From the NCBI GenBank assembly GCA_005116815.1, contig SWDR01000019.1, positions 17,114 through 62,584 on the forward strand: 45,471 nucleotides of DNA. Reading direction: 5' to 3'. Below, in pieces: positions 3,241 through 33,304 of this stretch. The position numbers were made by a program, and so were the translations under genes. The notes beneath the pieces are model-generated. The model was given only the letters and a program-made list of their open reading frames with translations, did no database searches and was not told the DNA's origin. Each line of letters opens with the position of its first letter. Positions within the stretch are counted from its first letter, which is position 1. This stretch comes from Nitrospira sp. GTDB taxonomy: Bacteria; Nitrospirota; Nitrospiria; Nitrospirales; Nitrospiraceae.

Positions 3241-3339
3241 AGTGCTGAGTCCTGAGTGCTGAGTTCTGAGTGCTGAGCGTTTATGGTCGGGGCTTTTCGT
3301 ATCTTCTTTCTCAGCACTCAGCACTACCTGCTCAGCACT
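3241..3339. repeat. Heptad-word hairpin between thiG and thiE
   Basis: The left arm (3241-3277) is five consecutive 7-base words of the type AGTGCTG, with AGTCCTG and AGTTCTG variants. The right arm (3312-3339) is the reverse complement, again in 7-base register: AGTGCTG, AGCAGGT, AGTGCTG, AGTGCTG when read on the minus strand. The 34-base loop contains a GGGGCTTTT stretch. It fills the gap between the thiG stop and the thiE start and could attenuate thiE or stabilise the upstream mRNA; this is inference. Confidence 0.85.
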
Positions 3340-3341
3340 TA

Positions 3342-4115
3342 TTAGAGCATCCCTTCGATCGGGCTGCTGGCTGTGGCATACAGTTTTCGTGGAATGCGCC
3401 CGGCTTTGTAGGCCAATCTGCCAGCATAGACCGCATATTTCATGGCCTCGGCCATCGCAATGGGATCTTTGGCCCCGGCAATGGCCGTGTTCATGAGCAC
3501 CGCGTCCGCCCCTAACTCCATCGCAAAAGCGGCATCGGACGCGGTCCCGACGCCGGCATCCACGATGATCGGCACTTTGATCATTTCCATGATGATCTTG
3601 AGATTATAGGGATTGCGGATACCGAGTCCCGACCCAATCGGTGCCGCCAAGGGCATGACGGCGGGGCAGCCCACGTCAACGAGCTTCTGGGCCACGATGG
3701 GATCGTCATTCGTATAGGGCAGCACGATGAAGCCCTCTTTGACGAGAATCTTTGCCGCTTCGATCAATCCGGCGGTATCGGGGAACAGGGTCCGCTCGTC
3801 ACCGAGCACTTCCAGTTTGATCAAGTCCGACACACCGGCGGCCCGGCCCAAGCGGGCATACCTCAGCGCATCCTCCACGTTGTAGCAGCCGGCGGTATTG
3901 GGAAGAATGATGTACTTCTTCGGATCGAGATAGTCGAGCAGGTTCTCTTTGGAGCGATCGGTGATGTTCACACGCCGCACCGCCACCGTCACCACATCGG
4001 CGCCAGACGCCTCGATGGCTTTTTTGGTTTCCGCAAAGTCCTTATACTTGCCTGTCCCCACCCATAGCCGAGACGCAAACACACGACCGGCAATGGTCAA
4101 CGGATCATTCTGCAT
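3342..4115 (-). CDS. thiG: Thiazole synthase ThiG
   Basis: ThiG builds the thiazole phosphate of thiamin from DXP, dehydroglycine and the ThiS thiocarboxylate. The 257-residue length and (beta/alpha)8 motifs fit the family: the N-terminal [24 protein letters not shown], the Schiff-base lysine in [10 protein letters not shown], and the phosphate-binding [28 protein letters not shown] near the C-terminus. ATG 4115 is chosen for the preceding GAGGAAGGGG and because the family begins at this point; an in-frame start 15 codons upstream would lie deep inside thiS. The start overlaps the end of thiS by 11 bases, so translation is probably coupled. Confidence 0.95.
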
Positions 4116-4365
4116 GGACGAAACCCCTTCCTCTGCCGTACATATCCAATGGCGCGCCACCGCCGATGAAGCTCAAGATCTCCACTCGATCCCCTTGTGT
4201 CAGACTTCGCTGGTCGAACTCCTTGCGATCGAGAATTTCTAAATTGAGTTCCACCGCCACACGCTCGGTCTTGATGGCAAGCTCACGCAGGAGATCCCCC
4301 ACGGTGGCATCTGCCCGAACGTCCCGTGGATCGCCGTTCACATGAATCTGAATCGCCGCTGCCAT
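4105..4365 (-). CDS. thiS: Sulfur carrier protein ThiS with a C-terminal tail past the diglycine
   Basis: ThiS is a ubiquitin-like protein whose C-terminal Gly-Gly is adenylated and thiocarboxylated to donate sulfur to ThiG. The 86 residues show the family pattern ([38 protein letters not shown]). Here the GGG at residues 68-70 is not terminal: 16 more residues ([16 protein letters not shown]) follow, encoded by DNA that also holds the thiG ribosome-binding site and start. The protein would need cleavage after the glycines to be active, or the extension could be tolerated or a sequence error. It is the first gene of the thi operon and sits next to a good promoter. Confidence 0.9.
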
Positions 4366-4373
4366 CGTTCCTC

Positions 4374-4403
4374 ATCCTAGGGGAGCAGAATTCAGAATGT
4401 CAA
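4374..4403 (-). promoter_or_regulatory. Predicted promoter of thiS-thiG-thiE
   Basis: On the minus strand TTGACA (4403-4398), an 18-base spacer and TAGGAT (4379-4374) precede thiS. The predicted start of transcription falls only a few bases before the ATG at 4365, so the mRNA would be nearly leaderless. No TPP riboswitch (no CTGAGA core) is visible upstream, and there would be no room for one if this promoter is used. Confidence 0.45.
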
Positions 4404-4412
4404 TAAAGCTGC

Positions 4413-4440
4413 GGGGCCTCGCCCCTTGCCCCCTATCCCT
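4413..4440. repeat. Heptad-word half-site between thiS and the HhH gene
   Basis: Read on the minus strand this is AGGGATA, GGGGGCA, AGGGGCG, AGGCCCC: degenerate 7-base words in register, like one arm of the hairpins elsewhere in the window. No matching opposite arm is seen, only a small local GGGGC/GCCCC pairing. It lies between two divergent genes, just upstream of the thiS -35 box. Confidence 0.5.
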
Positions 4441-4469
4441 GATCACGTCAGAATAGCGCCAGCTCAACC

Positions 4470-4967
4470 ATGATCACGTCGCCACAACATAACCAGCAGG
4501 TTGCCGGCATCTTTCGGTCGATTGCTGAACGCTTAGGCACCCAGCGGGCGAACCCCTATCGGGTCAGAGCCTATCGAAGGGCCGCGGATGCGATCGAAGC
4601 CTTGGAAGAAGACATCGCAGATGTCGCGGCACGGCAGGCATTGGAAGAGATTGATGGAATCGGCCGAGACCTGGCCGACAAGATTGAGGAATTTCTCAGA
4701 ACGGGAGCGATTCAGGCCTATGAAGCCTTGCGAACGCCACTCCCCGAGTCGGTGAAGGCCTGGACTCACCTCCCGGGACTGTCTGAATCACTTGTGGCCT
4801 ACCTCTATACCCGACTCTGCATCACCACATTGACCGACCTCGAGCGGCTGGTACGGTCGCACATGCTGCGCACCGTACCAGGGTTCTCAGGATCGGAAGA
4901 ACGGCTGCTTGACGCGATCACCGCTTCGCAGCAGCCCCCCATTAAGACGCGCGAGGAAGCTCCTTAA
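4470..4967 (+). CDS. Stand-alone helix-hairpin-helix protein, like the PolX N-terminal domain
   Basis: The 165-residue protein resembles the N-terminal 8-kDa-type domain of family X DNA polymerases: VAGIFRSIAERLGTQRANPYR, YRRAADAIEAL, then an HhH motif (LEEIDGIGRDLADKIEEFL, about residues 58-76) and a second HhH-like segment (LPGLSESLVAYLY). No nucleotidyltransferase or PHP domain follows, so it is not a polymerase. A role in binding DNA ends or flaps is plausible but unproven. The last 26 bases overlap convergently with the 3' end of ctpA. No ribosome-binding site is evident upstream of ATG 4470. Confidence 0.75.
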   Translation: MITSPQHNQQVAGIFRSIAERLGTQRANPYRVRAYRRAADAIEALEEDIADVAARQALEEIDGIGRDLADKIEEFLRTGAIQAYEALRTPLPESVKAWTHLPGLSESLVAYLYTRLCITTLTDLERLVRSHMLRTVPGFSGSEERLLDAITASQQPPIKTREEAP

Positions 4968-6312
4968 AGATCTTCCAGGTCTTCAACATTTCCACCGCTT
5001 TTTGCAGTTGGACGTCCTGCTCGATCGAAGGATCGCCAGAGGCATCGACGGAAGAAGGCTGGGGCAGTGTGCCACTCTTCAGCTGGCCCTCTTCAGACCC
5101 TTTGCCATTCTGAGCCGGCTGATCTTTCCCCGGCACAACTGCAGGCTTGGCCTGCTTGGGCTCCCCTTCTTTGTCTCCCGGCTTCGACTCCCCTGCCTTC
5201 GCCACCGTAGTCGGGAGCTGAGCCTTGACCACAATGTCAGGCGTGATGCCGGTCGATTGGATCGAGCGCCCTTTAGGCGTGTAGTACTTCGCCGTCGTGA
5301 GGCGGAGGCCTGATCCGTCCCCCAGCGGAAGAATCGTTTGCACCGATCCCTTGCCGAACGAGGTCGTCCCGACAATGACCGCCCGCCCGTAATCTTGTAG
5401 CGCACCGGCCACGATCTCGGACGCACTCGCCGATCCTTCATTGATGAGAATGATCATGGGCGAATCGTCCATCTGATCCTTCCCCTTGGCAATCCATTCA
5501 TCCTTCTTGCTCTCGCGTCCCTTGGTATAGACCACGAGTTTGCCGGCAGGAAGAAACTGCTCGGAGACCTCCACGGAGGCCGTCAACAATCCTCCGGGAT
5601 TGTTTCGCAAGTCCAGGATGGTCGATTGGAGCTTCTGCTCCCTGAACTGTTTGAGCACCTTGCTCAAATCACGCCCCGTCGACTCCTGGAATTGCGTCAG
5701 CCGAACGTAGCCGATATTGTCCAACACCTTCGACTTCACGCTCTCGATCTTAATGGTGTCGCGAACCAGCGTAAATTGGAGCGGATCGGGAATCCCGTCT
5801 CGCTGAATCGTCAAGTTGACCTTCGAGCCCTTGGGACCGCGCATCTTTTGAACGGCATCCATCAGCGTGAGATCCTTGGTCGTTTCGTCGTTCACCTTGG
5901 TAATGAAATCGCCGGACTTGATCCCAGCCCGGTAGGCCGGCGTGCCCTCGATAGGCGCGATCACCGCCAACCGGTTCTCCTTCACGCCGATCTGGATACC
6001 CACGCCCCCGAACTCACCCTTCGTTTCGACCTGCATTTCCTTATACATATCCGGCGTCATATAGGCCGAATGCGGGTCGAGGGTGGAGAGCATCCCACGA
6101 ATGGCTCCCTGAACGAGATCCTTCACCTTCGTTTCATCGACATAACTCTTCTGCACTTGGGTCAACACCTCGGAAAACGTTTTCAGCTCTTCATAGGTTT
6201 CCGTGGCATGTCCGGTCCGCTCCCAGCCCTTGCCGAGCATCACGCCCAACACCAGCGCCACCACCACCGTCGGGCCTACCATCCAGAATCGTCGTCGGGG
6301 ATACTGTTCCAT
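4942..6312 (-). CDS. ctpA: C-terminal processing peptidase, S41 family (CtpA-like)
   Basis: This is a periplasmic serine protease with a Ser/Lys dyad. From ATG 6312 it has 456 residues. It has an N-terminal membrane anchor (WMVGPTVVVALVLGVMLG), an S41 helical region (VLTQVQKSYVD), a PDZ domain (about 80-165, GEFGGVGIQIG and AYRAGIKSGDFI), a catalytic Ser in NEGSASASEIVAGAL and Lys in TTSFGKGSVQTI, and a Pro/Lys/Gln-rich C-terminal stretch before VEMLKTWKIFKEL. ATG 6312 is preferred because GGAAAGGA precedes it and the longer form would overlap envC. It is last in the ftsE-ftsX-envC run, which suggests it trims cell-wall or division proteins; this is inference. Confidence 0.92.
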   Translation of the reverse strand: MEQYPRRRFWMVGPTVVVALVLGVMLGKGWERTGHATETYEELKTFSEVLTQVQKSYVDETKVKDLVQGAIRGMLSTLDPHSAYMTPDMYKEMQVETKGEFGGVGIQIGVKENRLAVIAPIEGTPAYRAGIKSGDFITKVNDETTKDLTLMDAVQKMRGPKGSKVNLTIQRDGIPDPLQFTLVRDTIKIESVKSKVLDNIGYVRLTQFQESTGRDLSKVLKQFREQKLQSTILDLRNNPGGLLTASVEVSEQFLPAGKLVVYTKGRESKKDEWIAKGKDQMDDSPMIILINEGSASASEIVAGALQDYGRAVIVGTTSFGKGSVQTILPLGDGSGLRLTTAKYYTPKGRSIQSTGITPDIVVKAQLPTTVAKAGESKPGDKEGEPKQAKPAVVPGKDQPAQNGKGSEEGQLKSGTLPQPSSVDASGDPSIEQDVQLQKAVEMLKTWKIFKELPRAS

Positions 6313-6341
6313 AAAGATAACGTCCTTTCCTCTTCCGTTCC

Positions 6342-7529
6342 CTATCGCCTCGCTAACCATTGTAGGGGATCCAACGGCTCCGCCCCCTCGCGCAACTCAA
6401 AGTATAGTGTATTTTCACCCGTCATGCCCGTATCGCCTGTTTCGCCGATCGCGTGCCCTGCCTCGACCTGTGCGCCCACCGTCACAAGAATTTTCGATGC
6501 ATGGGCATAGAGCGAAAAGAAGCCATTGGCATGATCGAGGATTATAACGAGCCCATACCCTTTCAACCAGTCCGCATACACAACGGACCCCGGCATCACC
6601 GCATGGATATCGCTCCCCTCGACCGTCTTAATCTCGATCCCTCTCCGTTGCACATAGGTATTGAAGGTCGGATGTTTCTGGCGACCGAAGAAAGAGATCA
6701 CACTCCCATCAGCCGGCCAGGGCAAGGCGCCCTTCGCACCACGCGGGGCCATTCCCCCGGTCGGAGGCCGAACCGGTGCCGCGCGACGGCGCGTTTCCAA
6801 CTCGCGCAACAGACTGTCGATACGCGAGGCGGACCGCTCTAACTCTTGGAGCGCATGTTCGTACGACTCTTTTTCATGCGTGATCCTGGTGAGATAGACC
6901 TTTTTTTCTTTCTTAACGGACTTCATCTCCGCGAGCTGTTTTTCGGTACTGTGCTTGTACGACAGCATCCCGACTCGTGCCTCTTCCCGCTGCCGCTCCG
7001 CCTGCTCCATACGAGTCATATCGGTCCGAAAGGTGCCCATCAGTGCAAAATCCCGTTCGGACACCGCCGAGAGATACTGCAGCCTCCGCTGAAAATCCCC
7101 GTACGAATCCGAGGCGAGCAAGGTCTTCCACTGCCCGAAGCGGCCTTCCATATATTGGACCCGTAATCGCGCTAAGATCGCATCCTGCCGTTCACGCACA
7201 CTTCCCCTTAGCCCGGACAATTGCTCATTGAGAACCTCGATCTCCTGATCTTTCTTCTTCAACTTCCGACTAATCTCCAGATGCGCCTGCCGGTAATGCA
7301 GCACACGTTCGTCGAGCGTCTGAATCCCTTGCAGCAGCGACTCGCGCTTTTTCCCTGCTTCATCGGCCAATTTTCGCTTTTCTTCGATCTGATCTTTGAG
7401 CTGTTCGAGCGCCTTACGTTCTTTCTCAATCTTGTCGACGATCGGATCGGCCAGCACAACCGCCGGCCAGGAAAGACCCAGCAGCCCCCAGATCACGACT
7501 CCGACCCTGAGTCCGATCCAGCAACTCAT
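6342..7529 (-). CDS. envC: EnvC-like murein hydrolase activator with degenerate LytM domain
   Basis: The protein has 395 residues. The signal peptide (LRVGVVIWGLLGLSWPAVVLA) is followed by long coiled coils (about 32-255) and a C-terminal LytM/M23 fold (about 275-393). The metal-binding residues of active M23 peptidases are mostly replaced: RRGIEI stands where HxGxD is expected, and LYFEL where HxHFE is expected; only the H of LYAHASK remains. Loss of catalytic residues together with coiled coils is the hallmark of EnvC, which activates amidases under control of FtsEX. The start overlaps the ftsX stop by 4 bases (ATGA), which supports partnership with FtsX. Confidence 0.9.
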   Translation of the reverse strand: MSCWIGLRVGVVIWGLLGLSWPAVVLADPIVDKIEKERKALEQLKDQIEEKRKLADEAGKKRESLLQGIQTLDERVLHYRQAHLEISRKLKKKDQEIEVLNEQLSGLRGSVRERQDAILARLRVQYMEGRFGQWKTLLASDSYGDFQRRLQYLSAVSERDFALMGTFRTDMTRMEQAERQREEARVGMLSYKHSTEKQLAEMKSVKKEKKVYLTRITHEKESYEHALQELERSASRIDSLLRELETRRRAAPVRPPTGGMAPRGAKGALPWPADGSVISFFGRQKHPTFNTYVQRRGIEIKTVEGSDIHAVMPGSVVYADWLKGYGLVIILDHANGFFSLYAHASKILVTVGAQVEAGHAIGETGDTGMTGENTLYFELREGAEPLDPLQWLARR

Positions 7530-9090: not shown

Positions 9091-9097
9091 TGTGTCC

Positions 9098-9490
9098 TTA
9101 CCATCGAAGATCGTCCCCTGGGACGTCGAACGCATTCTCAATATGCTCGATCCGCGAAGCCTCGGCGTTCGTGCCTTGCAACAAGACGACATCGAATCGG
9201 CAGGGTCGATCCTTGAGATGGTGCCGAGCCAAATACTGCGCTGCCAACTGGATCAACTTCTCTTGTTTCCGCTGATGCACGGCATGGATCGCGCCGCCGA
9301 ATGCATCGGTGCGACGCGCCTTCACCTCGACAAAGACCAGCACCTGACCGTCTTCAGCCACGAGGTCCAACTCTCCCACCGACGAGCGCACATTGCGCGC
9401 CAGAATCCGATACCCCTTGTTGCGCAAGTACTGCTCTGCCGCCGACTCTCCTTCTTGCCCGAAGAGTTTCCGTGGGTCAAGGATGGTCAC
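9098..9490 (-). CDS. yraN: YraN/UPF0102 family endonuclease-fold protein
   Basis: The 130 residues carry the UPF0102 restriction-endonuclease-like core: GQEGESAAEQYLRNKGYRILARNVR, then GELDLVAEDGQVLVFVEVKAR, where E-D-ExK would form the catalytic-type motif. The function is unproven in most bacteria. It follows rnhB with a 4-base overlap and precedes ftsE. rnhB-yraN adjacency is widespread. Confidence 0.93.
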   Translation of the reverse strand: MTILDPRKLFGQEGESAAEQYLRNKGYRILARNVRSSVGELDLVAEDGQVLVFVEVKARRTDAFGGAIHAVHQRKQEKLIQLAAQYLARHHLKDRPCRFDVVLLQGTNAEASRIEHIENAFDVPGDDLRW

Positions 9491-18069: not shown

Positions 18070-19626
18070 ATGCACGGCTCAACGTATCACGGTTCTCGCG
18101 CTTGCATTGTCGTCACAGGTCTGGGAATTCTCCTCGGTCTGTTCTCTTTCGGTACTCCCTGCTTCGCACAATCCCAGGAACATCACCCCGCATTGTTTCG
18201 CGCCCTCGACAACCTCTCCAGCGAACGCATGCTCGCCGACATCACCATGCTCAGCAGTCCTTCATTTAACGGCCGCCAAACAGGCACAGTGAACGATGCC
18301 CGCTCGGCGACATGGATCATTCAGCGATTTCATGAATCCGGTCTCTCACCTGCGAATGCCGGCCTCGATCCATTCATGCCTAGCGGGCCGGACCTTGGAG
18401 TCCCCAGCGGATTGATGACCACAACGGTCACAACGTCGACCATTGCACCGGACCCCGTCCTTCGTATTTCATCGGGCAGTGACTCGCTCATCCAGCAACT
18501 CGGAACAGACTACCTCCCTATCCTCGATTCACCCTCCGCCGAAGTGCGCGGGCCAGTCATATTTGTGGGTTATGGAATCGTGGACGCGACGCACGGCATC
18601 GATGACTACACCGGAGTCGATACGACCAATGCCGTAGTCCTCTTCCTCCGCGGCGCCCCCACATACTACAAGGGGACCGTCAGTCACGCAGACAAGGTGC
18701 GATTCGCACGACAGAAAGGCGCAATCGGCTATCTCACGGCCACTGGACCAACGCTCAGCTCCTATGAGTCGCGCCGAGGCGTCACGGGAAAACCAGGAGC
18801 CTTTTATGGCCTCTCTCCTCGATCGGACACCATCCCAGGGGCCTGGATCAGTACCGGTCTCGCCTTGCAGATTCTCGCCGCTCCCGATCAGGCACAACCA
18901 AGTCGGCTGCAGGCCTTACAGGAACAGTTGAATCGCTCCCCTGCCACACAATCCATCAACACTGGCCGCTACGCCTCTCTCGATTGGCAGACTCGTTTGG
19001 AAGAAGGCGTCCTCATGAACGTGCTCGCCCTCTTGCCTGGAAGCGATCCGCAGAAGACACATGAGGTCCTCGTGATCGGTGCGCATCGTGACCATTTCGG
19101 ACGACAAGCCGGCCTGCTCTTCCCCGGCGCAGACGATAATGCCTCCGGCACGGCCGTGATGTTGGAAGTTGCCCGCGCCATGGCCAACTCAAAAGTACGA
19201 AGCAAGCGGACGGTCTTGTTCGTCTCGTTTAGCGGAGAAGAGCAGGGGCTCATCGGCTCGCGGCTTTTCCTCCAACGGTCGGTCATGCCTATCGGCTCGA
19301 CCAGAGCCATGATCAACATCGACCATGCAGGCATTGGAAACGGAAGGCTGACGGTCGGCGTAACCGGATTGGACAAGAGCCTCGCTGTGGAGGCGGGACA
19401 GACGGCAGGGCTTACCGACAAACTGGATCTCTATGGATTTTTCCCCGGCGGCGATCACGTGCCGTTCAAAGAGGTGGGAGTCCCAACCATCACGGTCGTC
19501 AGCGGCGGTGTTCACCCACACTTCCATCAGCCCACCGACAGCGCCGACACAGTCAATCCTGAAATTCTGCATAGCGTGGCTCGCTATGTCCTCGCCCTCA
19601 CCTGGCAACTGGCAAATACTGAATAG
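18070..19626 (+). CDS. Secreted M28-family zinc peptidase
   Basis: From ATG 18070 the protein has 518 residues with a signal peptide (CIVVTGLGILLGLFSFGTPCFA). An inserted PA-like domain (about 100-270) precedes the M28 core: VIGAHRDHFG (His and Asp zinc ligands), GADDNASGTAVMLEVARAM (bridging Asp), SFSGEEQGLIGS (catalytic Glu and ligand Glu), INIDHAG, and a terminal HPHFHQPTDSADTVNPE. It probably acts as an aminopeptidase or carboxypeptidase outside the cytoplasm. TATAGT around 18033 may be the -10 of its promoter. An earlier in-frame start 25 codons upstream lacks support. Confidence 0.92.
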   Translation: MHGSTYHGSRACIVVTGLGILLGLFSFGTPCFAQSQEHHPALFRALDNLSSERMLADITMLSSPSFNGRQTGTVNDARSATWIIQRFHESGLSPANAGLDPFMPSGPDLGVPSGLMTTTVTTSTIAPDPVLRISSGSDSLIQQLGTDYLPILDSPSAEVRGPVIFVGYGIVDATHGIDDYTGVDTTNAVVLFLRGAPTYYKGTVSHADKVRFARQKGAIGYLTATGPTLSSYESRRGVTGKPGAFYGLSPRSDTIPGAWISTGLALQILAAPDQAQPSRLQALQEQLNRSPATQSINTGRYASLDWQTRLEEGVLMNVLALLPGSDPQKTHEVLVIGAHRDHFGRQAGLLFPGADDNASGTAVMLEVARAMANSKVRSKRTVLFVSFSGEEQGLIGSRLFLQRSVMPIGSTRAMINIDHAGIGNGRLTVGVTGLDKSLAVEAGQTAGLTDKLDLYGFFPGGDHVPFKEVGVPTITVVSGGVHPHFHQPTDSADTVNPEILHSVARYVLALTWQLANTE

Positions 19627-19629
19627 AAT

Positions 19630-19683
19630 AGGCACGAGGCTTGGGAGCGAGAGGTTCACCCTCTAGCCTCTCTCCCCGCACCT
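19630..19683. repeat. Heptad-word hairpin between convergent genes
   Basis: The left arm reads AGGCACG, AGGCTTG, GGAGCGA, GAGGTTC (19630-19657). The right arm read on the minus strand is AGGTGCG, GGGAGAG, AGGCTAG, AGGGTGA (19683-19656). Both are in 7-base register with almost no loop. It fills the 61-base gap between two converging genes, a natural place for a bidirectional terminator. Confidence 0.75.
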
Positions 19684-21787: not shown

Positions 21788-22504
21788 ATGATGGCGCCTG
21801 AGCCTAGTCCACATGCGACACCGGCTCAGGCCGACGAACAAGGAGCGGCTCTCTCGCTGCTTCCCATCGCCGCTACCCTCTCTTTTTACACCCTCCCTGC
21901 CTCGCTTCAGGAACAGCCACTCGTCCAATTCGCGCCGCAACTGATCGCCTATCTTGCCTTTGGCCTCTGGGCCTCGCGTAACCGCAACATCGTTTCCCGA
22001 CTGGGGCTGGAGAAAGAGAAGGTACAGGATGGCCTGCGCTGGGGACTCGTGACAGGCCTGCTGCTCGGTGGCCTGAATACCTTCGTGATTCTCTCAGTCT
22101 ATCCGCATCTGGGCTATGACATCCATTTCCTCACTGCCACACCGCATGCCCAACTCCCTCTCTTCGTCATGGTCCCCTGGTTCATCTGCGGCATCGCGCT
22201 CTTTGTGGAACTAAACTTTCGAGGATTTATTCTAGGACGACTGGCAACACTTGAATCGAGGCTGTGGAAATCCAGCGTCGCCTCTCGCCTCTCGCCTCTC
22301 GCCCTCATCATCAGCGCGGTGGTATTTGCTTTCGACCCCTTCATGGTGAATACATTCCAATACCTCCATTGGATTGCGTTATGGGACGGGCTCATCTGGG
22401 GAATCATCCGGGTGCGCACCGGCAATCTCTACATCACGATCGTTGCGCATGCAATTGAAGTCATCGTGATGTATAGCGCGGCGAGACTCGCGCTGATGTC
22501 ATAG
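21788..22504 (+). CDS. CPBP-family intramembrane protease (CAAX/Abi-like)
   Basis: The 238-residue membrane protein has about six or seven hydrophobic segments. The CPBP motifs are weak but present: FVELNFRGFILGRL for the EExxxR motif (the first Glu of the pair is Val here), SAVVFAFDPF for the FxxxH-like motif (His is replaced), and IVAHAIEVIVM for the last His motif. The missing second Glu and His raise the possibility that it is a binding protein and not an active protease. A heptad-repeat tract at 22282-22302 lies inside the coding region just before the second motif. Confidence 0.75.
   Translation: MMAPEPSPHATPAQADEQGAALSLLPIAATLSFYTLPASLQEQPLVQFAPQLIAYLAFGLWASRNRNIVSRLGLEKEKVQDGLRWGLVTGLLLGGLNTFVILSVYPHLGYDIHFLTATPHAQLPLFVMVPWFICGIALFVELNFRGFILGRLATLESRLWKSSVASRLSPLALIISAVVFAFDPFMVNTFQYLHWIALWDGLIWGIIRVRTGNLYITIVAHAIEVIVMYSAARLALMS
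22282..22302. repeat. Three tandem heptads inside the CPBP gene
   Basis: CTCTCGC occurs three times without interruption (22282-22288, 22289-22295, 22296-22302), GCGAGAG on the other strand. The same GAGAGGC-type words appear in the intergenic hairpins of this window, but here they are read as protein (around ASRLSPLALI). 21 bases is seven codons, so the frame is kept. Confidence 0.8.
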
Positions 22505-22893: not shown

Positions 22894-22977
22894 CGTGATG
22901 CGTGAAGCGCGAGAACGGCGAACTGCGGATTGCACCGCTCTCGCCTCTCTTGCATTTCACGCCTCACGTTTCACGTC
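22894..22977. repeat. Heptad-word hairpin between convergent genes
   Basis: The left arm contains CGTGATG, CGTGAAG, CGCGAGA (22894-22914). The right arm read on the minus strand is GACGTGA, AACGTGA, GGCGTGA (22977-22957), followed by AATGCAA and GAGAGGC in the same register. It sits in the 141-base gap between two converging genes. Confidence 0.75.
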
Positions 22978-23019
22978 TAACGAGAAGCGCCGCTGAGTTG
23001 GGATCGAATAGAAGACGGC

Positions 23020-26646: not shown

Positions 26647-26661
26647 GTGGTACGCTGACGC

Positions 26662-27888: not shown

Positions 27889-27973
27889 ATCGGGCGACTC
27901 CTGGAAGCTCACCGCACGAGGACGCAGGGTAACACCTGAGCGAGAAGGCTGCAATGGAATGATCGGGAGATCA

Positions 27974-28055
27974 AGGCACGGGGTACGGGGCACGCGGCAA
28001 GTAACGCAAAAGAAGCCCTCTCAGCCTATCGCCTCGTGCCTCTCGCCCCAAGCCT
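27974..28055. repeat. Heptad-word hairpin between yqgE and the lipoprotein gene
   Basis: The left arm reads AGGCACG, GGGTACG, GGGCACG, CGGCAAG (27974-28001). The right arm on the minus strand reads AGGCTTG, GGGCGAG, AGGCACG, AGGCGAT, AGGCTGA (28055-28021). All words keep 7-base register; the GGC core is nearly constant and the other positions vary. It starts 2 bases after the yqgE stop in the direction of transcription. Confidence 0.8.
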
Positions 28056-28057
28056 GA

Positions 28058-28618
28058 CTAGTTCAGGGAGGGATCGAAAGGCATATCCGCATAATGACGG
28101 TAATCGTCACCCAGAGCGCTCACAATATCGGGCCAGATACGGGTGGGATCCTTGTCGAACACGGCATTGGGATCTGCCGGAATGGTAAACCAGGAACCGG
28201 TCTGCATTTCAGACTCCAGTTGCCCTGGCCCCCAGCCGGAATACCCGAGGTAGGCGCGGAATGCATCGTGCCCTCCGCTGTTGGTCAAAATACGATCGAC
28301 CAGGTCTGTATCCCCGCCTAGGCAAATCCCATCGAACACATGATGGGAGTTCTCAGGCAATTGATCCAAGCGATAAAGCATCATGACCTGATTCGTTTGC
28401 ACCGGTCCTCCGGAGAAGAGGACGTGCCGTTGGCCTTCGAGGATCGGCACTTGAGGTAACGCTTCCGAGACCGACATCGCCGTTGGACGATTGACGACGA
28501 CACCAAGCGCACCTTCAGCCCCATGCTCACAGAGCAACACGACGGTTTGCCGAAAATTCGGATCGCGCAAGGAGGGTGCGGCAATGAGGAAGATGCCTTT
28601 TCCCAATGGAGCTTTCAT
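28058..28618 (-). CDS. yqgE: YqgE/AlgH family protein
   Basis: From ATG 28618 the protein has 186 residues: GKGIFLIAAPSLRDPNFRQTVVLLCEHGAEGALGVVVNRP at the N-terminus, VLFSGGPVQTNQVMMLYR in the middle, and RAYLGYSGWGPGQLESEMQTGSW near the C-terminus. All are UPF0301 hallmarks. The family is conserved and linked to transcriptional regulation (AlgH) in Pseudomonas, but the biochemical role is unclear. Twelve more in-frame codons upstream lack similarity. Heptad hairpins flank it on both sides. Confidence 0.95.
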   Translation of the reverse strand: MKAPLGKGIFLIAAPSLRDPNFRQTVVLLCEHGAEGALGVVVNRPTAMSVSEALPQVPILEGQRHVLFSGGPVQTNQVMMLYRLDQLPENSHHVFDGICLGGDTDLVDRILTNSGGHDAFRAYLGYSGWGPGQLESEMQTGSWFTIPADPNAVFDKDPTRIWPDIVSALGDDYRHYADMPFDPSLN

Positions 28619-28676
28619 AGATATGATCCTACCGTGCGGGCCAGTGCGGTGCAAGCGGCATGACGAAGCAAGCGCA

Positions 28677-28750
28677 GAACGATGAACAATGAACGCGGAA
28701 TGCCGAGGGGACCATCGTCTCCCTGCTCATAGCTCAGCGTTCAGCGCTTC
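28677..28750. repeat. Heptad-word hairpin between the nitrilase gene and yqgE
   Basis: The left arm reads GAACGAT, GAACAAT, GAACGCG, GAATGCC (28677-28704). The right arm on the minus strand reads GAAGCGC, TGAACGC, TGAGCTA, TGAGCAG (28750-28723). The arms pair imperfectly but share the period and the GAAC/TGA core. It lies between two co-directional genes. Confidence 0.7.
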
Positions 28751-28765
28751 CCGGTTGACGGTAGG

Positions 28766-29554
28766 TTATCGGTAGAGGGATTCGCGGCGGTCACGGAGCA
28801 GATCGTTGTAGGGAGTAAGAGCTTTATTCCTCGCCTCGGCAGGATCGATCTCGAGAACATGGAGTTCTTTTTGGTCGCGCGGCGCGCGATGCAGTATCGC
28901 GCCCTTCGGAGCGACGATTTCGCTATTCCCGATAAAGGTCAGAGGAGCTTTGCCGCCTCGTGCTTCGATTCCTATGCGATTACTCGTGACGGCAAACACT
29001 CGATTCTCCCGGCACCGGACCGGCATGGAGTCCGGGCAATCCGGCAGCACGAGGTTCGAGGGATGGCAGATGATCTCGGCTCCCTTGATGGCCAATGTAC
29101 GAGCCGCCTCAGGATAGTACCAATCGAAACAGATCATTACGCCGATTTTAGCCGAGCCAATATCCCACACCTGAAATCCCGTGTCGCCTGGCGCAAAGAA
29201 TAATGTTTCTTCAAAAAACAGATGGGTCTTGCGATAACAGCCGATAAATCCGGACGGGCCGACCACCACGGCAGAGTTATAACAAACAGCCCCGGCGCGC
29301 TCCGGAAGACCGGCAACGATCACCATCCCGCGCCGCCTTGCAAGATCGATCAACCGTTGCGTCGTGGGGCCATCCGGCACCGACTCCGACAGCGCAAGCA
29401 CTTCTTGTTGCGACAGGAACTGATATCCGGAGGCACACAACTCAGGCAACACGATCAGATCGGCATCAGCCCGATCGAGTGCTTCCACAATCGTATCGAG
29501 ATTGCGCGAGACCTCGCCGAACTCCGGAGCGAACTGATAATAACCGACGCGCAT
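28766..29554 (-). CDS. Carbon-nitrogen hydrolase (nitrilase superfamily)
   Basis: The 262-residue amidase-type enzyme has the Glu-Lys-Cys triad: LIVLPELCASGYQ (Glu), GCYRKTHLF (Lys) and GVMICFDWYYPEAARTLA (Cys). The fold and length fit N-carbamoyl or omega-amidase branches, but the substrate cannot be told from sequence. ATG 29554 (MRVGYYQFAPEFG) is preferred; an ATG three codons upstream is also possible. The smbP terminator lies just upstream, so expression depends on read-through or a separate promoter. Confidence 0.93.
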   Translation of the reverse strand: MRVGYYQFAPEFGEVSRNLDTIVEALDRADADLIVLPELCASGYQFLSQQEVLALSESVPDGPTTQRLIDLARRRGMVIVAGLPERAGAVCYNSAVVVGPSGFIGCYRKTHLFFEETLFFAPGDTGFQVWDIGSAKIGVMICFDWYYPEAARTLAIKGAEIICHPSNLVLPDCPDSMPVRCRENRVFAVTSNRIGIEARGGKAPLTFIGNSEIVAPKGAILHRAPRDQKELHVLEIDPAEARNKALTPYNDLLRDRRESLYR

Positions 29555-29575
29555 GATCGTCATATCCCCAGAACA

Positions 29576-29603
29576 GAACGGGCAGGGTCGCCCCTGCCCG
29601 TTC
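29576..29603 (-). terminator. Terminator of smbP
   Basis: A perfect 12-bp stem, GAACGGGCAGGG (29576-29587) and CCCTGCCCGTTC (29592-29603), with a 4-base loop lies 25 bases after the smbP stop. On the minus strand TGTTCTGGGG follows; the T-run is poor but the stem is very stable. Confidence 0.75.
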
Positions 29604-29628
29604 GAAGAAAACCTCTGACCGAAACGAC

Positions 29629-29976
29629 TTACTTCACTTCAGACAAATGGGTCACCGCACCTTCGGCATGTTGGGTGGCCACATCGGCATGACCGGCCTT
29701 GCCATGAGCCACGGCTTCCTTGAGGTGCTTGACGCCTTCATCCAGGTGAGGATTCTTCACGCCTGCCGCCTCGGCATGCTTGAGGGCACCCTCGGCATGC
29801 TGCACCAGGGCATCGGCATGTCCCTGCTTGCCATGCGCCGCGGCTTCTTTGGCATGCTCCACCGCTTCAGCTACATGCTTGTTTTCGGCAAGGGCCAGCC
29901 CACTGAACAGCGGGAAACCAACAAGCGCGGCAACCGCCACAACGACCAATGCTCCGCGATGGGATTTCATTTTCAT
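29629..29976 (-). CDS. smbP: SmbP-like small metal-binding protein, periplasmic
   Basis: The 115 residues have a signal peptide (GALVVVAVAALVGFPLFSGLALA) and a mature four-helix-type domain made of two repeats. Each follows HxxEAVxHxKEAxAHGKxGHADxxxQHAEGAxxH, with about 13 histidines in regular spacing. This matches SmbP of Nitrosomonas europaea, a periplasmic copper-binding protein, and fits a nitrifier with heavy use of copper enzymes. ATG 29976 has GAGGAGG upstream. A TTGACA promoter lies before it and a stable hairpin after it, so it is a single-gene unit, probably highly expressed. Confidence 0.93.
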   Translation of the reverse strand: MKMKSHRGALVVVAVAALVGFPLFSGLALAENKHVAEAVEHAKEAAAHGKQGHADALVQHAEGALKHAEAAGVKNPHLDEGVKHLKEAVAHGKAGHADVATQHAEGAVTHLSEVK

Positions 29977-30043
29977 GGATTCCTCCTCAGTGGTTAAAAT
30001 TCAATCGACGCGCGAAAGGGATCCGCAGTATCTTCGGTCCTTC

Positions 30044-30072
30044 ACCTTACACAGCCGGTTTTTTGCTGTCAA
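30044..30072 (-). promoter_or_regulatory. Predicted promoter of smbP
   Basis: Minus-strand TTGACA (30072-30067), a 17-base spacer and TAAGGT (30049-30044). The -35 overlaps the stop codon of the rhodanese gene. The leader to ATG 29976 would be about 60 bases and ends with the GAGGAGG ribosome-binding site. Confidence 0.5.
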
Positions 30073-30947
30073 GAAGCTCTGACTTGTGGATCAACGTTCA
30101 AGATATGCTGCAACCCCTTGGCGTCTTTCTCCACCGGACAGGCAAAGTCCCGACTCCATTCCCACCAGGATCCCGGATAGTTGCGCACATTGCGATAGCC
30201 CGCAAGCCTGAGGACGAAATAGAGCCAGGCGGAACGGACGCCGCCGGTGCAATAGCAGATGATCTCTAGATCCTGCTTAAGCCCTTTGTCGGTAAGACTC
30301 TCGCTGATCGTCACCAAGTCTTTCACCGTGGCATTCGGTTGAAGAAATCCAGTCCAGGCCAGATGGATCGCCGAGGGAATGTGCCCGGGCCGCGGGATCC
30401 CCGACACTTCTTTCCCGAGATATTCTTCGAGGCTGCGCGCATCGACGATCACGGTGCCAGGATGTGGCTGCTTCACGAGCTGCTTCAATTCATCTTTTGC
30501 GGCAATCACGGTAGCGACCGGCTTGACAGTAAACGTCCCCGGCTTGGGCGTCACGCACCCATGTTCGAACGGACGTTTCTCCTGCACCCACTTGACCCAC
30601 CCGCCATCGAGAATGCGCAGCCTCGTATGTCCAAAATATTCCAACATCCAGAACATGCGGCCTTCGTCACCCCAGTTGTCGAAGGGGTTCGAGTAGATCA
30701 CCACATCGCTGTCCGGACTGATACCCAGCGCGCGAATCTTCTGCTCCATGAATACGCGATCGGGATTGAGCAGCCCCTTCGGCACGGCCTGGGGATCGCT
30801 GTACTCATGCCAAGTCGAATGCACGGCGCCTGGAATATGGCCGCCGAATTCATAGGCTGCCCGCCCACGCACATCGATAATCACCAGACCTGGCTGCCCC
30901 AAGCTCTGCTGGAGGGTTTCCGTATCGATCAACAACGGGTGTGTCAT
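30069..30947 (-). CDS. Two-domain rhodanese (thiosulfate/3-mercaptopyruvate sulfurtransferase)
   Basis: The 292 residues hold two rhodanese domains. The N-terminal one (about 5-135: VIIDVRGRAAYEFGGHIPGAVH, HTRLRILDGGWVKW) lacks the active Cys. The C-terminal one has DARSLEEYLGKEVSG and the loop IICYCTGGVRSAW with the catalytic Cys, close to the CRxGxR loop of thiosulfate:cyanide sulfurtransferases but with TGGVRS. It likely moves sulfane sulfur in the cytoplasm. The multiheme cytochrome gene ends 32 bases upstream, across a heptad element. Confidence 0.92.
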   Translation of the reverse strand: MTHPLLIDTETLQQSLGQPGLVIIDVRGRAAYEFGGHIPGAVHSTWHEYSDPQAVPKGLLNPDRVFMEQKIRALGISPDSDVVIYSNPFDNWGDEGRMFWMLEYFGHTRLRILDGGWVKWVQEKRPFEHGCVTPKPGTFTVKPVATVIAAKDELKQLVKQPHPGTVIVDARSLEEYLGKEVSGIPRPGHIPSAIHLAWTGFLQPNATVKDLVTISESLTDKGLKQDLEIICYCTGGVRSAWLYFVLRLAGYRNVRNYPGSWWEWSRDFACPVEKDAKGLQHILNVDPQVRAS

Positions 30948-30971
30948 GTCGTTCCTTTTGTGGTGTGAGCA

Positions 30972-31044
30972 CTCAACAATCAGCCCTGAGCTCCGGCCTT
31001 ACAACTTCCCCCCTCAGGCTGACGGCTGGTTGCCGAAAGCTGAT
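30972..31044. repeat. Heptad-word element covering the 3' end of the cytochrome gene
   Basis: The left arm reads CTCAACA, ATCAGCC, CTGAGCT (30972-30992). The right arm on the minus strand reads ATCAGCT, TTCGGCA, ACCAGCC, GTCAGCC (31044-31017). The word core is TCAGC. Unlike the other sites, most of it is inside a coding region and supplies the last 20 or so codons of the cytochrome. Confidence 0.6.
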
Positions 31045-32266
31045 TGCTCTCGTTCAATACCGCTGCGAGCGTAGCGGACAGAGGAAACTCCCGCTCGTAC
31101 ACGACGAATTGATAGGGGTCGTTCCCCGTCAGTCCATATTTAGTCTGCAACATCTCATGCTGCGTATCGGTCAGGATGTGGTACTGCACGCGGGTCTTTA
31201 CTTTCAAGCCTTCGGCCTGCGCCGGCAGTTGGTACACAAACTGATATTCCCGACTGGCCAATGGCAACAGGCGGTTATCATACAACTCCACGATAGCCGG
31301 CTGCCAGAGGATCCAACGGCCCATCGTCGACGTTTGCCGATCGAGGATCTTTCCCTGCCGATCTTCCACGGAAAACTCCACGGTGAAATACCGATCGGGA
31401 TCGCCCGTCGGAATCTTATGCCCGGCTCCTGCATTGATCAAGGTGAGCGTAAATCCGACGCGATCGCCCGCTTTGGGCGAAACGGTATCGGCCCGTACTT
31501 GGATGCCCACCGCCCGCTTCACCATATCGGGATCGTGCCCGCCGCGCCAGAGATGCTGGCGTCCCCGCCGGATTGGGCCATTCGTCGCCACCGGCCGATC
31601 GATCTCGGGCATGTGGCAACTCTGGCAAATGAAGCCCCGCTCCTGCATGAAGAACTTGCCTTCGTATTCCGCGTAGGTCCCGCAAGGGCCAACCTTGTAG
31701 AATTGCGCCGGGCCGGACACCACGTTATGGCAACGCTGGCAGACCTGCGCGGTGCGAAAGTTTGGATCGAACTTGGTCGGATGGGGCGCGGCGGAATCTT
31801 CGAACGGACCATAGATGACGCCGTCCCGCACATGGCAGGCCGCGCAGGTGACCGACTCCTTCTGATATTCAGGATCGTAGTGGGGATTGGGCTCCTGGAT
31901 TGCCTTCTCCACCCGCCCCCGCGGAATTTCTTTCACCAACGTCGGCTGCTGATTTTCTAACGGGGTATGGCAGTTCAAACAGACCCAGATATTCTTATCT
32001 TTTTTCCAATAGGCCTGAAAGAACGGGTCCTCATAGGCATGCGCGTGGATACTCGTCTTCCATTCGTCGTAGATCTCGCGATGACATTGACCGCAAGACT
32101 CGGCCTTCAGGCTCGTCAACCCTTCCGGAATCATTTGAAAAGGAATCGCATGGGCATACTCATCGCGCAGCCCGAAGATCACGACCGGCTTGATCTCGGT
32201 GTAGTACAGATAGACGAGCACGCCGGCCAAGACAGAACCGAGCAGAATCTTGATAGGAGTCTTCAT
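30980..32266 (-). CDS. Membrane-anchored five-heme cytochrome c
   Basis: The 428 residues begin with an uncleaved-type anchor (IKILLGSVLAGVLVYLYYTEI), followed by five CxxCH sites: CGQCH (58-62), CLNCH (96-100), CAACH (141-145), CQRCH (176-180) and CQSCH (214-218). The heme region resembles cytochrome c554-type multiheme proteins. From about 250 on there is a beta-rich domain without heme sites (VGFTLTLINAGAGHKIPTGDPDRYFTVEFSVED). A periplasmic electron-transfer role is likely; the partner is unknown. The start overlaps the HDAC gene stop by 4 bases. The last 20 or so residues (SATSRQPEGGSCKAGAQG) are encoded by a heptad-repeat tract and look like an added tail. Confidence 0.9.
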   Translation of the reverse strand: MKTPIKILLGSVLAGVLVYLYYTEIKPVVIFGLRDEYAHAIPFQMIPEGLTSLKAESCGQCHREIYDEWKTSIHAHAYEDPFFQAYWKKDKNIWVCLNCHTPLENQQPTLVKEIPRGRVEKAIQEPNPHYDPEYQKESVTCAACHVRDGVIYGPFEDSAAPHPTKFDPNFRTAQVCQRCHNVVSGPAQFYKVGPCGTYAEYEGKFFMQERGFICQSCHMPEIDRPVATNGPIRRGRQHLWRGGHDPDMVKRAVGIQVRADTVSPKAGDRVGFTLTLINAGAGHKIPTGDPDRYFTVEFSVEDRQGKILDRQTSTMGRWILWQPAIVELYDNRLLPLASREYQFVYQLPAQAEGLKVKTRVQYHILTDTQHEMLQTKYGLTGNDPYQFVVYEREFPLSATLAAVLNESNQLSATSRQPEGGSCKAGAQG

Positions 32267-33207
32267 GCGTTGAGGAGCGCCTGGATATGTCGATCGACCG
32301 ACGCGGCCAAGGAGGTCAGGTGATACCCGCCTTCGAGCGACGAGAGGATGCGCCCCTGAGCATGACGCTGTGCGATACCGGCCACGATGCCGGTGAGGTC
32401 CGCATAGCCCTCTTCGGTCAGCCCCATGCTCGCAAGAGGATCGTCCCGATGCGCATCGAAGCCGGCGGAGATGATCACGAATTCCGACTTGAAGGCATCG
32501 GCCGCCGGCACCAACGATTTCTGAAAGACGGCACGATACTCCTCATCGCCCTCGCCCGCTTCCATCGGCACATTGATCGTGAACCCTTCCCCCGCCCCTC
32601 GGCCACGCTCCGTCGCGCGGCCCGTGCCAGGATAATGCGGATACTGATGTGTGCTGAAGAACAGCACGGAGGGATCGTCGTCAAAACTATGTTGTGTGCC
32701 GTTGCCATGGTGCACATCCCAATCGACAATCAGTACGCGCGCGAGACCATGTTTTTTCTGCACATAGCGCGCAGCGATCGCCACATTGTTGAAGAGACAG
32801 AAGCCCATCGCGCGCCCAGCCTCGGCATGGTGCCCGGGTGGTCGCACAGCACAGAAGACATGGTCCACATTATTAGACATGATCGCATCGACTGCGGCTA
32901 ACGCCCCACCCGCTGCCAAATAGGCGGCAGTCAACGAACCGGGGGACATGGAGGTATCGGGATCGAGCGAGACCCGCCCATTGGCCGGTGCGCGAGACTT
33001 GAGCATCGCAAGATACGACGGTTCGTGGATCTGCGTGACCCATTCGTCTTCAGCCGCTCGCGGTTCAATCCTGGTCAGCCGAGCCGCCGTGCCGCCCTGC
33101 TCCAGCCGCTGCATGATGGCACGTAGCCGATCGGGCGACTCAGGATGTCCTGCGCCCATGTCATGGCCGAGATATGCCGAATGGTACACGAGACCCGTCT
33201 TACCCAT
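32263..33207 (-). CDS. HDAC-superfamily deacetylase (AcuC/APAH-like)
   Basis: The 314-residue zinc hydrolase has the histone deacetylase fold: GLVYHSAYLGHDMGAGHPESPDRL at the start, FCAVRPPGHHAEAGRAMGFCLFNNVAIAA (the His pair), VDWDVHHGNGTQHSFDDDPSVLFFSTHQYPHYPG (zinc Asp/His) and ISAGFDAHRDDPLASMGL (zinc Asp). Bacterial members deacetylate acetyl-CoA synthetase, polyamines or other small amides; the substrate here is unknown. Its stop overlaps the start of the multiheme cytochrome (ATGA), so the two are translated together. Confidence 0.94.
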   Translation of the reverse strand: MGKTGLVYHSAYLGHDMGAGHPESPDRLRAIMQRLEQGGTAARLTRIEPRAAEDEWVTQIHEPSYLAMLKSRAPANGRVSLDPDTSMSPGSLTAAYLAAGGALAAVDAIMSNNVDHVFCAVRPPGHHAEAGRAMGFCLFNNVAIAARYVQKKHGLARVLIVDWDVHHGNGTQHSFDDDPSVLFFSTHQYPHYPGTGRATERGRGAGEGFTINVPMEAGEGDEEYRAVFQKSLVPAADAFKSEFVIISAGFDAHRDDPLASMGLTEEGYADLTGIVAGIAQRHAQGRILSSLEGGYHLTSLAASVDRHIQALLNA

Positions 33208-33218
33208 GCATGAATCCT

Positions 33219-33304
33219 GTGATCGGTGATCAGTGATGGGTGATCGGTAATGGGCAAGAGCCAGGAACGTCCCGACTCATCACCCTTCACGCATCACTCA
33301 TCAC
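33219..33304. repeat. Heptad-word hairpin between divergent genes
   Basis: The left arm is five words, GTGATCG, GTGATCA, GTGATGG, GTGATCG, GTAATGG (33219-33253). The right arm on the minus strand is GTGATGA, GTGATGC, GTGAAGG, GTGATGA (33304-33277). The 7-base register is perfect on both arms. It lies between divergent HDAC and TPR genes, where a terminator makes little sense. Confidence 0.85.

What the first reader, a model, noticed from the sequence alone, without database searches (positions are those of the whole stretch)
3241..33304. A family of hairpins built from degenerate 7-base words in strict register
Sites at 3241-3339, 19630-19683, 22894-22977, 27974-28055, 28677-28750, 30972-31044 and 33219-33304 share one architecture. 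The 5' arm is a run of 3-5 heptads and the 3' arm is a run of reverse-complement heptads, with no phase slips. The word differs from site to site (AGTGCTG, AGGCACG, CGTGAAG, GGGCACG, GAACGAT, ATCAGCC, GTGATCG), and within a site each repeat varies at two or three positions. In every case the G/purine-rich words are on the 5' arm, so both transcripts would read G-rich first. Sites occur between convergent, co-directional and divergent genes, so simple termination does not explain all of them. Heptanucleotide tandem repeats (STRR) are known from cyanobacteria, but an inverted, word-changing version is not something I recognise. Possible roles: bidirectional terminators, mRNA ends, or products of a template-driven 7-base copying process.
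Basis: seen in the sequence. Interest (0 to 1): 0.82.

Follow-up and report, generated by a model that had tools for sequence, protein, structure and literature searches.

The report
Word-switching seven-base hairpins in Nitrospira
Gene gaps in the nitrifying bacterium Nitrospira are dotted with hairpins built from loosely repeated seven-base words whose layout stays fixed while the words change between sites and species; it is a many-word relative of repeats known from Xanthomonas and cyanobacteria, with no proven function.

Summary
The window is Nitrospira (1.97 Mb MAG, 71.6% complete). In a 640-kb sample, period-7 arrays occur 79 times in gaps; other periods from 4 to 13 occur 0-1 times, except period 9 (13). 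Of the 79, 64 have an inverted partner, and 62 of those 64 are G-rich first. Without the window and hit-picked stretches: 25 arrays, 18 paired, 17 G-first.

The words are a recurring vocabulary (AGTNCTG, GTGATNN, GAACGNN, GAGGCNA, GTGAARC, GCTGATA, GTTTCNN). At one orthologous gap, the occupant (word class, MITE-like element or none) changed at least 15 times over 40 tips. At another, heptads alternate with period-9 hairpins. The same words, in frame, fill and switch in linkers of the Lhr helicase.

Terminator signatures are weak. G-first order also holds for 23 of 23 paired period-9 arrays in named loci.

Closest known: Xanthomonas GGGAATC convergent heptad pairs; Nostoc trnL P6b heptad hairpin with class switching. 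Verdict: new variant of a known kind. Best reading: slippage-prone heptad satellites tolerated in spacers and linkers, kept as self-pairing arms in untranslated RNA. Generator and cause of polarity are unproven.

The parts
3241..3339 (.). Heptad hairpin, word AGTNCTG, G-rich arm first; 2 nt past the stop of thiG (3342-4115, minus)
   Evidence: lag-7 and inverted repeat both 0/400 in shuffles; array and partner score 19; ThiG Pfam
4414..4446 (.). Lone C-rich heptad array (CCTCGCC / CTTGCCC) in gap 4366-4469, no inverted partner
19599..19625 (.). Weak direct heptads (CTGGCAA CTGGCAA) at the 3' end of an M28 peptidase-like gene
   Evidence: 13/21 threshold
19630..19683 (.). Weak heptad tract between convergent genes (GAGGC-type word)
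   Evidence: lag-7 p 0.0075, inverted repeat p 0.27
22271..22309 (+). Direct array TCGCCTC x3.7 inside an Rce1-like protease gene (21788-22504), no partner
22894..22989 (.). Heptad hairpin, CGTGAAG / GGCGAGA words, between convergent genes
27974..28055 (.). Heptad hairpin, AGGCACG word, 2 nt past the stop of algH (28058-28654, minus); heptad array detected in only 3 of 35 named relatives with this gap
28677..28750 (.). Heptad hairpin, GAACGAT word, between a CN-hydrolase gene and algH; in other species the same gap holds period-9 hairpins, a MITE-like element or nothing
30972..31044 (.). Doubtful site: degenerate heptads (TCAGC words) overlapping the 3' end of a cytochrome-like gene; polarity opposite to the rest
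   Evidence: orthologues with TCAGC words
33219..33304 (.). Heptad hairpin, GTGATNN word, in a divergent gap (HDAC-like gene / TPR gene); orthologous site across Nitrospira with different words

Best explanation
These are degenerate heptanucleotide satellites. Short arrays of a seven-base word are seeded, lengthened, drift and are replaced in DNA under little sequence constraint: spacers between genes and flexible protein linkers. In transcribed but untranslated spacers most are kept as a convergent pair (G-rich arm, loop, C-rich arm). An RNA read from either side then folds into a hairpin by pairing words rather than a fixed sequence. Selection acts on self-pairing and order, not on the word, so words, and occasionally the period (7 or 9), can be swapped. 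In genes only the strand without in-frame stops survives. Shown: period, vocabulary, pairing, polarity, word switching at orthologous places, in-frame coding copies. Inferred: slippage and patching between loci as the source; and, as the most likely reason for pairing and polarity, protection of untranslated RNA (the C-rich arm is never exposed before its partner exists, which would limit Rho loading).
For: Period 7 is near-exclusive and mainly intergenic. 64/79 arrays have an inverted partner against 2/79 with shuffled flanks, and 62/64 are G-first (the two arms of one hairpin count separately, about 53 elements in all). In named loci 24 of 26 paired heptad arrays are G-first. MITE-like (9:7, 2 ties) and other inverted repeats (54:29, 9 ties) show less bias than heptads (44:1). 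Folding: 50 hairpins, median z -4.2, 45/50 below -2. Permuting heptads within arms costs little (mean -34.6 to -33.3 kcal/mol; real better than the permuted mean in 29/50), so pairing is mostly at word level, with a modest excess of mirrored order (28/36 sites, p 1.4e-5). Orthologous gaps: word switching, period 9, MITE-like or none; 15 parsimony steps over 40 tips on manual classes. Clean 7-nt differences in one arm: L150 vs L110, L119 vs the others, window vs L094. Lhr linkers: different words in the same linker, in frame. Of 11 internal coding arrays, 7 are C-rich on the coding strand, all with TGA on the other strand; the 4 G-rich ones lack TGA (some gene calls may be wrong). Rho is encoded.
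Against: No expression data; the Rho link is inference only. Indel lengths give only mild support for slippage: length 7 is 6 of 49 indels in arrays (length 6: 3, length 8: 2) against 40 of 1,417 elsewhere (32 and 16), and the pairs are not independent. The GAACGAT family behaves as a dispersed repeat with shared loops (about 79-92% identity; 10 of the 14 best pairs listed, the other 4 being AGTNCTG), often next to or inside MITE-like elements, so not all sites arise locally. How an array is replaced by another vocabulary word with no length change (Lhr linker 4, 141 nt in six genomes) is unexplained. Mirrored order could equally come from fold-back copying.
Confidence: 0.5

Rival explanations
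1. Bidirectional transcription terminators or mRNA 3'-end stabilisers, selected for at gene ends.
For: 25 of 35 co-directional elements lie within 12 nt of the upstream stop; of the 15 with 40 nt or more of spare gap, 12 are nearer the stop (p 0.035), against 12 of 20 for MITE-like elements (p 0.50). Stable folds. Divergent gaps are slightly poorer (4/64 vs 10/52 convergent).
Against: Only 7 of 49 have a T-rich stretch after the hairpin (no control run). Median 14 nt to the next start in co-directional gaps (16 of 35 within 12 nt), leaving no room for a promoter. Seven elements lie in divergent gaps by the second definition. The orthologous site with most heptad arrays, 33219-33304, is in a divergent gap. 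The same arrays sit in protein linkers.
Confidence: 0.2
2. A family of mobile palindromes (REP/BIME, MITE or RAYT type) whose members have diverged in word.
For: The GAACGAT family has paralogues sharing loops; nested cases in L028, L096, L097, L102; five gaps hold both heptads and MITE-like elements (3.5 expected, so no excess); one Y1 transposase in the genome.
Against: Among the 14 best-matching pairs listed, loops are shared in the GAACGAT pairs; I saw no common loop in the GTGAT, AGTNCTG or GAGGC sites by eye. The Y1 transposase has its own terminal repeat, unlike the heptads. Coding linkers mostly hold direct arrays, not palindromes. Target duplications were not sought.
Confidence: 0.17
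3. All-frame translation stop cassettes: TGA once per heptad, a period coprime to 3, and G-first on both strands close every frame on entry from either side.
For: TGA is the most enriched trinucleotide in the G strand of the own-genome arrays (210 vs 61 after column permutation, z 14.5); all three frames closed in 59% of arrays vs 21% permuted (0 of 300) and 1% on the C strand; similar in G161 (58% vs 24%).
Against: In G174 the excess is not significant (38% vs 25%, 98 of 300 permutations) and in G066 it is modest (69% vs 49%). Period-9 arrays close all frames in 0 of 31 yet are G-first in 23 of 23 paired cases in named loci, many of them from one orthologous gap, and in 6 of 7 in the own sample. 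TAA and TAG are not among the nine most enriched triplets in the own-genome set. Words are few, so TGA is pseudo-replicated. The Xanthomonas word GGGAATC has no TGA.
Confidence: 0.08
4. A dedicated enzyme adds or copies heptads at DNA ends: both 3' ends of a break are extended with G-rich words and then joined, giving the G-first inverted form directly.
For: G-first polarity across words, and at period 9 without all-frame stops. Lone arrays also tend to point their G strand away from the nearer gene: 6 of 6 and 14 of 19 elsewhere (p 0.06).
Against: Many words, so no single template. No RVT_1 in a 71.6% complete genome. No candidate enzyme tested.
Confidence: 0.05

Closest known systems
Xanthomonas GGGAATC heptameric repeats (Rehm et al. 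2015, PMC4692102; search listing and passages seen)
   Same: Intergenic heptads; 70 and 75 cases of paired sites in convergent orientation; sense-strand repeats near stop codons and antisense-strand repeats near starts; same gene context for 83% between two species; under-represented between divergent ORFs and in coding regions.
   Different: One fixed G-tract word, read there as G-quadruplex DNA. Nitrospira has many words, GG is depleted, words and period switch, and coding linkers carry them.
Nostoc trnL intron P6b heptad hairpin (Kaasalainen et al. 2015, PMC4476775; passages and section 18 read)
   Same: A hairpin stem built on heptad repeats (TDNGATT or NNTGAGT); class switches at one orthologous position; a 7-nt unit gained or lost on one side.
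   Different: One intron locus with two word classes; here dozens of gaps, at least seven words, and protein linkers.
Heptamer arrays in Beggiatoaceae (TAACTGA; MacGregor 2015, PMC4679880; abstract, introduction and passages read)
   Same: Intergenic heptads; orientation in ORFs governed by stop codons in all three frames.
   Different: Direct repeats of one word, mostly just upstream of starts; one inverted case reported.
STRR of heterocystous cyanobacteria (recalled; heptanucleotides of Calothrix are mentioned in passages of PMC4692102, as is a Helicobacter pylori GTGATTA heptad)
   Same: Heptanucleotide arrays in intergenic DNA.
   Different: Direct arrays (recalled); PMC4692102 reports only a few inverted pairs for the Nostoc word it studied.
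REP/REPIN with RAYT, and Rickettsia palindromic elements in frame in genes (titles and abstract starts in search listings only, otherwise recalled)
   Same: Abundant intergenic palindromes; in the Rickettsia case, in-frame tolerance inside genes.
   Different: Fixed conserved sequence; no heptad periodicity known to me (recalled).

Membership tests
Xanthomonas-type convergent heptad repeats | unit of exactly 7 nt, intergenic | tested here: met
   79 intergenic arrays at period 7 vs 0-1 at other periods from 4 to 13 except 9 (13); 25 in stretches not picked by hits
Xanthomonas-type convergent heptad repeats | paired copies with G-rich strands convergent | tested here: met
   62 of 64 paired arrays G-first; 17 of 18 in unpicked stretches
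Xanthomonas-type convergent heptad repeats | G-tracts able to form G-quadruplexes / word GGGAATC | tested here: not met
   words AGTNCTG, GTGATNN etc.; GG dinucleotide depleted, z -6
Nostoc P6b-type heptad hairpin | stem of heptads with class switching at one site | tested here: met
   gap 33208-33386: word class, MITE-like or none, 15 steps over 40 tips, manual classes
Nostoc P6b-type heptad hairpin | lies in a group I intron | tested here: not met
   no Rfam family at gathering score in the window
Intrinsic terminator | stem followed by U-tract | tested here: not met
   7 of 49 have 5 or more T in the next 10 nt, no control set; 0 of 49 pass the strict terminator scan
Intrinsic terminator | RNA ends mapped at the site | not testable with these tools
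   no transcriptome held
REP/RAYT elements | fixed palindrome shared with the ends of a Y1 transposase gene | tested here: not met
   the only Y1_Tnp match (L181:2415-3359) is bounded by its own repeat, not heptads; genome 71.6% complete
MITE / dispersed palindrome | copies share loop and flanks, target duplication | tested here: inconclusive
   GAACGAT family shares loops; not seen by eye in other families; target duplications not examined

The most novel reading that the evidence does not exclude
Nitrospiraceae carry an active process that overwrites any tolerant stretch, whether gene spacer or protein linker, with heptad (or nonad) text drawn from a shared vocabulary, laid down G-rich strand outward from each gene. 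The architecture is the heritable, selected thing and the word is free: a structural element conserved by period, pairing and polarity but not by sequence. The same process would underlie the Xanthomonas and Nostoc heptads, making G-quadruplexes incidental there.
Probability: 0.2. Interest if true: 0.85.

Novelty: new variant of a known kind. Interest (0 to 1): 0.62.

Why it matters
Sequence-based searches miss an element whose sequence is free and whose period, pairing and polarity are conserved. Heptads have been treated as single-word simple repeats, explained by G-quadruplexes (Xanthomonas, PMC4692102) or polymerase slippage (Mrazek 2007, as cited in PMC4679880). A genome with many words, no G-tract words, the same G-first polarity, period switching and in-frame copies in a helicase makes those explanations directly testable, and questions whether G-quadruplex formation is the reason for the convergent pairs. 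It also gives a clear case of repeat text sitting in protein linkers and being replaced between close species.

Tried and rejected
RAYT/REP: one Y1_Tnp gene (with a DnaA-C domain) lies on contig C75 beside AGTNCTG arrays, but its own ends carry a different repeat and the arrays lie outside it; rejected. Reverse transcriptase: no RVT_1 match in the own genome. Stop-cassette reading: strong TGA enrichment, but period-9 arrays keep the polarity without it; demoted. Reversed order of heptads between arms, seen by eye in L041: no excess over 36 sites (-0.05, p 0.47). Indel-length spectrum as proof of slippage: the first version aligned unrelated words and is not used; the stricter version is only mildly supportive. 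Automatic word classes (20 steps, 17 of 40 'none/other') were too crude; I reclassified by reading the sequences (15 steps), which is a manual step. The array count of 19 of 39 for gap 33208-33386 includes one false hit (L134, in a MITE-like gap). Paper search for the words as text: one irrelevant paper. Rfam: nothing in the window. Co-occurrence of heptads and MITE-like elements: 5 gaps, 3.5 expected, no signal.

Biases. 12 of the 40 own-genome stretches were picked because one search had AGTNCTG hits in them, so density figures from all 40 are high; one search gives the figures without them and without the window. The G161, G174 and G066 stretches were chosen at hits (G148, G164, G045 and G102 at contig starts), so their densities show presence, not rate. 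My gene caller is home-made; gap types, start sites and some 'coding' arrays carry errors. The groups that score zero (f2, f3, f4, f12, f23) were sampled with only 25-160 kb each, E. coli with 50 kb, and G032 (f3) has GTGATNN hits genome-wide (27+17) despite zero in its 20 kb. In one search the reversed-pattern control also hits in several AT-rich genomes (G066: 14+5 against 62+70), so 53 of 148 is not a clean count. The Acidobacteria and Proteobacteria loci were not examined for arrays.

Full report
WHERE IT IS. The window lies in a Nitrospira genome: the AlgH-like protein of the window is 99% identical to that of Nitrospira sp. Bin_54_10 (L091), and most of the 70 loci returned are named Nitrospira or Nitrospirae. 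The held genome G000 is a MAG of 1,973,679 bases in 81 contigs, 71.6% complete.

CHECK OF THE SITES. Against 400 dinucleotide shuffles each, five of the seven sites are beyond any shuffle for both period 7 and inverted repeat; 19630 fails the inverted-repeat test, and 30972 is weak, C-rich first and partly inside a gene. Additional arrays in the window are 4414-4446 (lone), 22271-22309 (inside an Rce1-like gene) and a weak one at 19599-19625.

GENOME-WIDE. I took 40 stretches of G000; with the window this is 640,428 bases, 648 called genes, about 94 kb outside genes. De novo inverted repeats in gaps (107 of 400 gaps) have lag-7, 14 and 21 identity of 0.51, 0.56 and 0.52 against 0.21-0.32 at the other lags from 2 to 20; shuffled gaps and coding segments show nothing comparable, though they yield only 9 and 10 inverted repeats. 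Of 391 N-free gaps, 55 hold a hairpin whose best lag is 7 (3 in three shuffled sets together; period 9: 10; other periods 1-8). As arrays (15 of 21 lag matches), there are 79 at period 7 in gaps and 21 in called genes; at other periods from 4 to 13 there are 0-1 in gaps, except 13 at period 9. Of the 79, 64 have an inverted partner within 130 nt (2 with shuffled flanks) and 62 of the 64 are G-first; both arms of a hairpin can count, and the arrays merge to 53 elements. Leaving out the window and the 12 stretches that I had chosen because of hits, 25 arrays remain in 57.7 kb, 18 paired, 17 G-first; period 9 has 8, period 6 has 1.

ANATOMY. The words are not random. By family: AGTNCTG 16, GTGATNN 15, GAGGCNA 14, GAACGNN 14, GTGAARC 5, GCTGATA 5, GTTTCNN 3, other 7 (79 arrays). 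Most have a constant core and one or two freer positions. The RNA folds are stable (50 hairpins, median z -4.2), and shuffling heptads within the arms hardly weakens them (29 of 50 real folds beat the permuted mean), so arms of one word pair in almost any order. Variants nevertheless tend to sit opposite each other (28 of 36 sites, p 1.4e-5, register free). In gaps, elements nearly fill the space: a median of 5 nt to the upstream stop and 14 nt to the downstream start in 35 co-directional cases; MITE-like elements leave 19.5 and 108.

EVOLUTION. In the divergent gap 33208-33386, the words are GTGATNN in seven tips (window, L152, L110, L150, L119, N. moscoviensis L115, and L107 in degraded form), CGTGAAR/CGTNNNN words in 17, GCTGATA in one, a MITE-like element in six, and none in nine: 15 parsimony steps on a protein tree of 40 tips, classes assigned by reading. 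The GTGATNN hairpin aligns across species with single-unit differences in one arm only. In the gap between the CN-hydrolase gene and algH, heptads (window, L091, L094) alternate with period-9 hairpins (TTGGTTTGT or GCGAGACGG words; arrays in 15 of 60 named loci), MITE-like elements and mixed or nested forms, while the more distant species have a short gap without them. So position and architecture outlive word and even period.

IN GENES. The Lhr helicase of G000 holds five heptad arrays in four linkers, in frame. The same linkers in relatives hold other words: linker 1 has CATCACC (own), CTCAGCA (L204), TATCAGC (L205, L209, L210, L211), CCTCACC (L207), and two words in tandem (L218). Linker 3 has CTCAGNA, TTTCACG (L208) or CCTCACG (L209). 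Linker 4 of L210 carries a complete G-first hairpin in frame at the same length (141 nt) as the two-word version of the window genome. Of 11 internal coding arrays in the sample, 7 are C-rich on the coding strand and have TGA on the other; the 4 that are G-rich on the coding strand have no TGA (gene calls of my own). Stop codons thus explain which strand and which words survive in genes.

WHAT IT IS NOT. Not a canonical terminator, not a known Rfam family, not RAYT-driven by the evidence here, and not explained by stop codons alone. TGA is strongly enriched, but the period-9 arrays (0 of 31 closing all frames) are G-first in 23 of 23 paired cases in named loci, many from one gap, and in 6 of 7 in the own sample.

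SPREAD. GTGATNN arrays match in 53 of 148 Nitrospirota genomes searched, including other families (G148: 44+25, G032: 27+17, G164: 16+12; reversed-pattern control 0 in these); in several AT-rich genomes the control hits as often or more, so the 53 is an upper figure. Paired, G-first arrays were seen in G174 (7 of 8 arrays), G161 (10 of 12), G148 (2 of 2) and the AT-rich G066 (4 of 13); in G164 neither of 2 arrays was paired. In G066 one array drifts from AGTGATT-like to AGTAAGA-like words without losing register. No period-7 array was seen in the samples of f2, f3, f4, f12, f23 (25-160 kb each) and E. coli (50 kb). The G174, G161 and G066 stretches were chosen at hits.

HOW IT PROBABLY WORKS. 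Shown: period, vocabulary, pairing, polarity, switching, coding copies. Inferred: arrays grow and shrink by unit slippage and are overwritten by copying from other loci; in untranslated RNA, forms that pair with themselves persist, and the order G-rich then C-rich means that a C-rich tract, which could load Rho, is made only when its partner is already there. Rho is encoded. Xanthomonas has convergent pairs; Nostoc, where PMC4692102 found few pairs, belongs to a group described as lacking Rho (abstract start of PMC13289151 in the listing; that Xanthomonas has Rho is recalled). That contrast is suggestive, n = 3.

LITERATURE. Searches. PMC4692102 (passages) already describes convergent heptad pairs in Xanthomonas; PMC4476775 (passages, section 18) a heptad hairpin with class switching in Nostoc; PMC4679880 (abstract, introduction, passages) single-word heptads and, citing Mrazek 2007, heptads as the most abundant unit in most genomes, with polymerase slippage proposed. 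Among the papers listed by those eight searches of an open-licence library I saw none on heptads in Nitrospira.

VERDICT. Real, strong and genome-wide; a new, many-word variant of a known kind. The generator and the reason for the polarity remain open.

Noticed in passing
L055:11485-11613; 39 intervals in the G000 sample: MITE-like palindrome of about 125 bp (GCAGGATGCTGAAAAAG...CTTTTTGAGCATCCTGC), often in gene gaps of Nitrospira, in some relatives starting at the algH stop codon.
   Followed up: partly
L028:5936-6076; L096, L097, L102 algH upstream gap: Nested repeats: heptad hairpins inside the MITE-like element or inside period-9 arms.
   Followed up: partly
L181:2415-3359: Y1 (IS200-like) transposase with a DnaA C-terminal domain, bounded by its own inverted repeat ATGGGGTCAGGCATGAGTATTGACTTA.
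   Followed up: partly
L200:7369-7441 (G066): One array whose words drift stepwise from AGTGATT to AGTAAGA and GGCAAGA while register holds.
   Followed up: no
L104 and L106, gap after algH: Inverted arrays that look like period 6 (AGGTTG words); not counted.
   Followed up: no
G000 sample, gene 3' ends: Canonical intrinsic terminators by a strict scan at only 8 of 395 gene 3' ends.
   Followed up: no
L181:276-1040: Several arrays (three AGTNCTG, one GGCTGAA), all G-rich on the same strand, in a region of contig C75 that looks coding on the other strand.
   Followed up: no
L110/L153 orthologues of window 30948-30979: A long-period (about 15 nt) inverted array GGCTGAAGGGGTTCA in the gap where the window has the doubtful site.
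   Followed up: no
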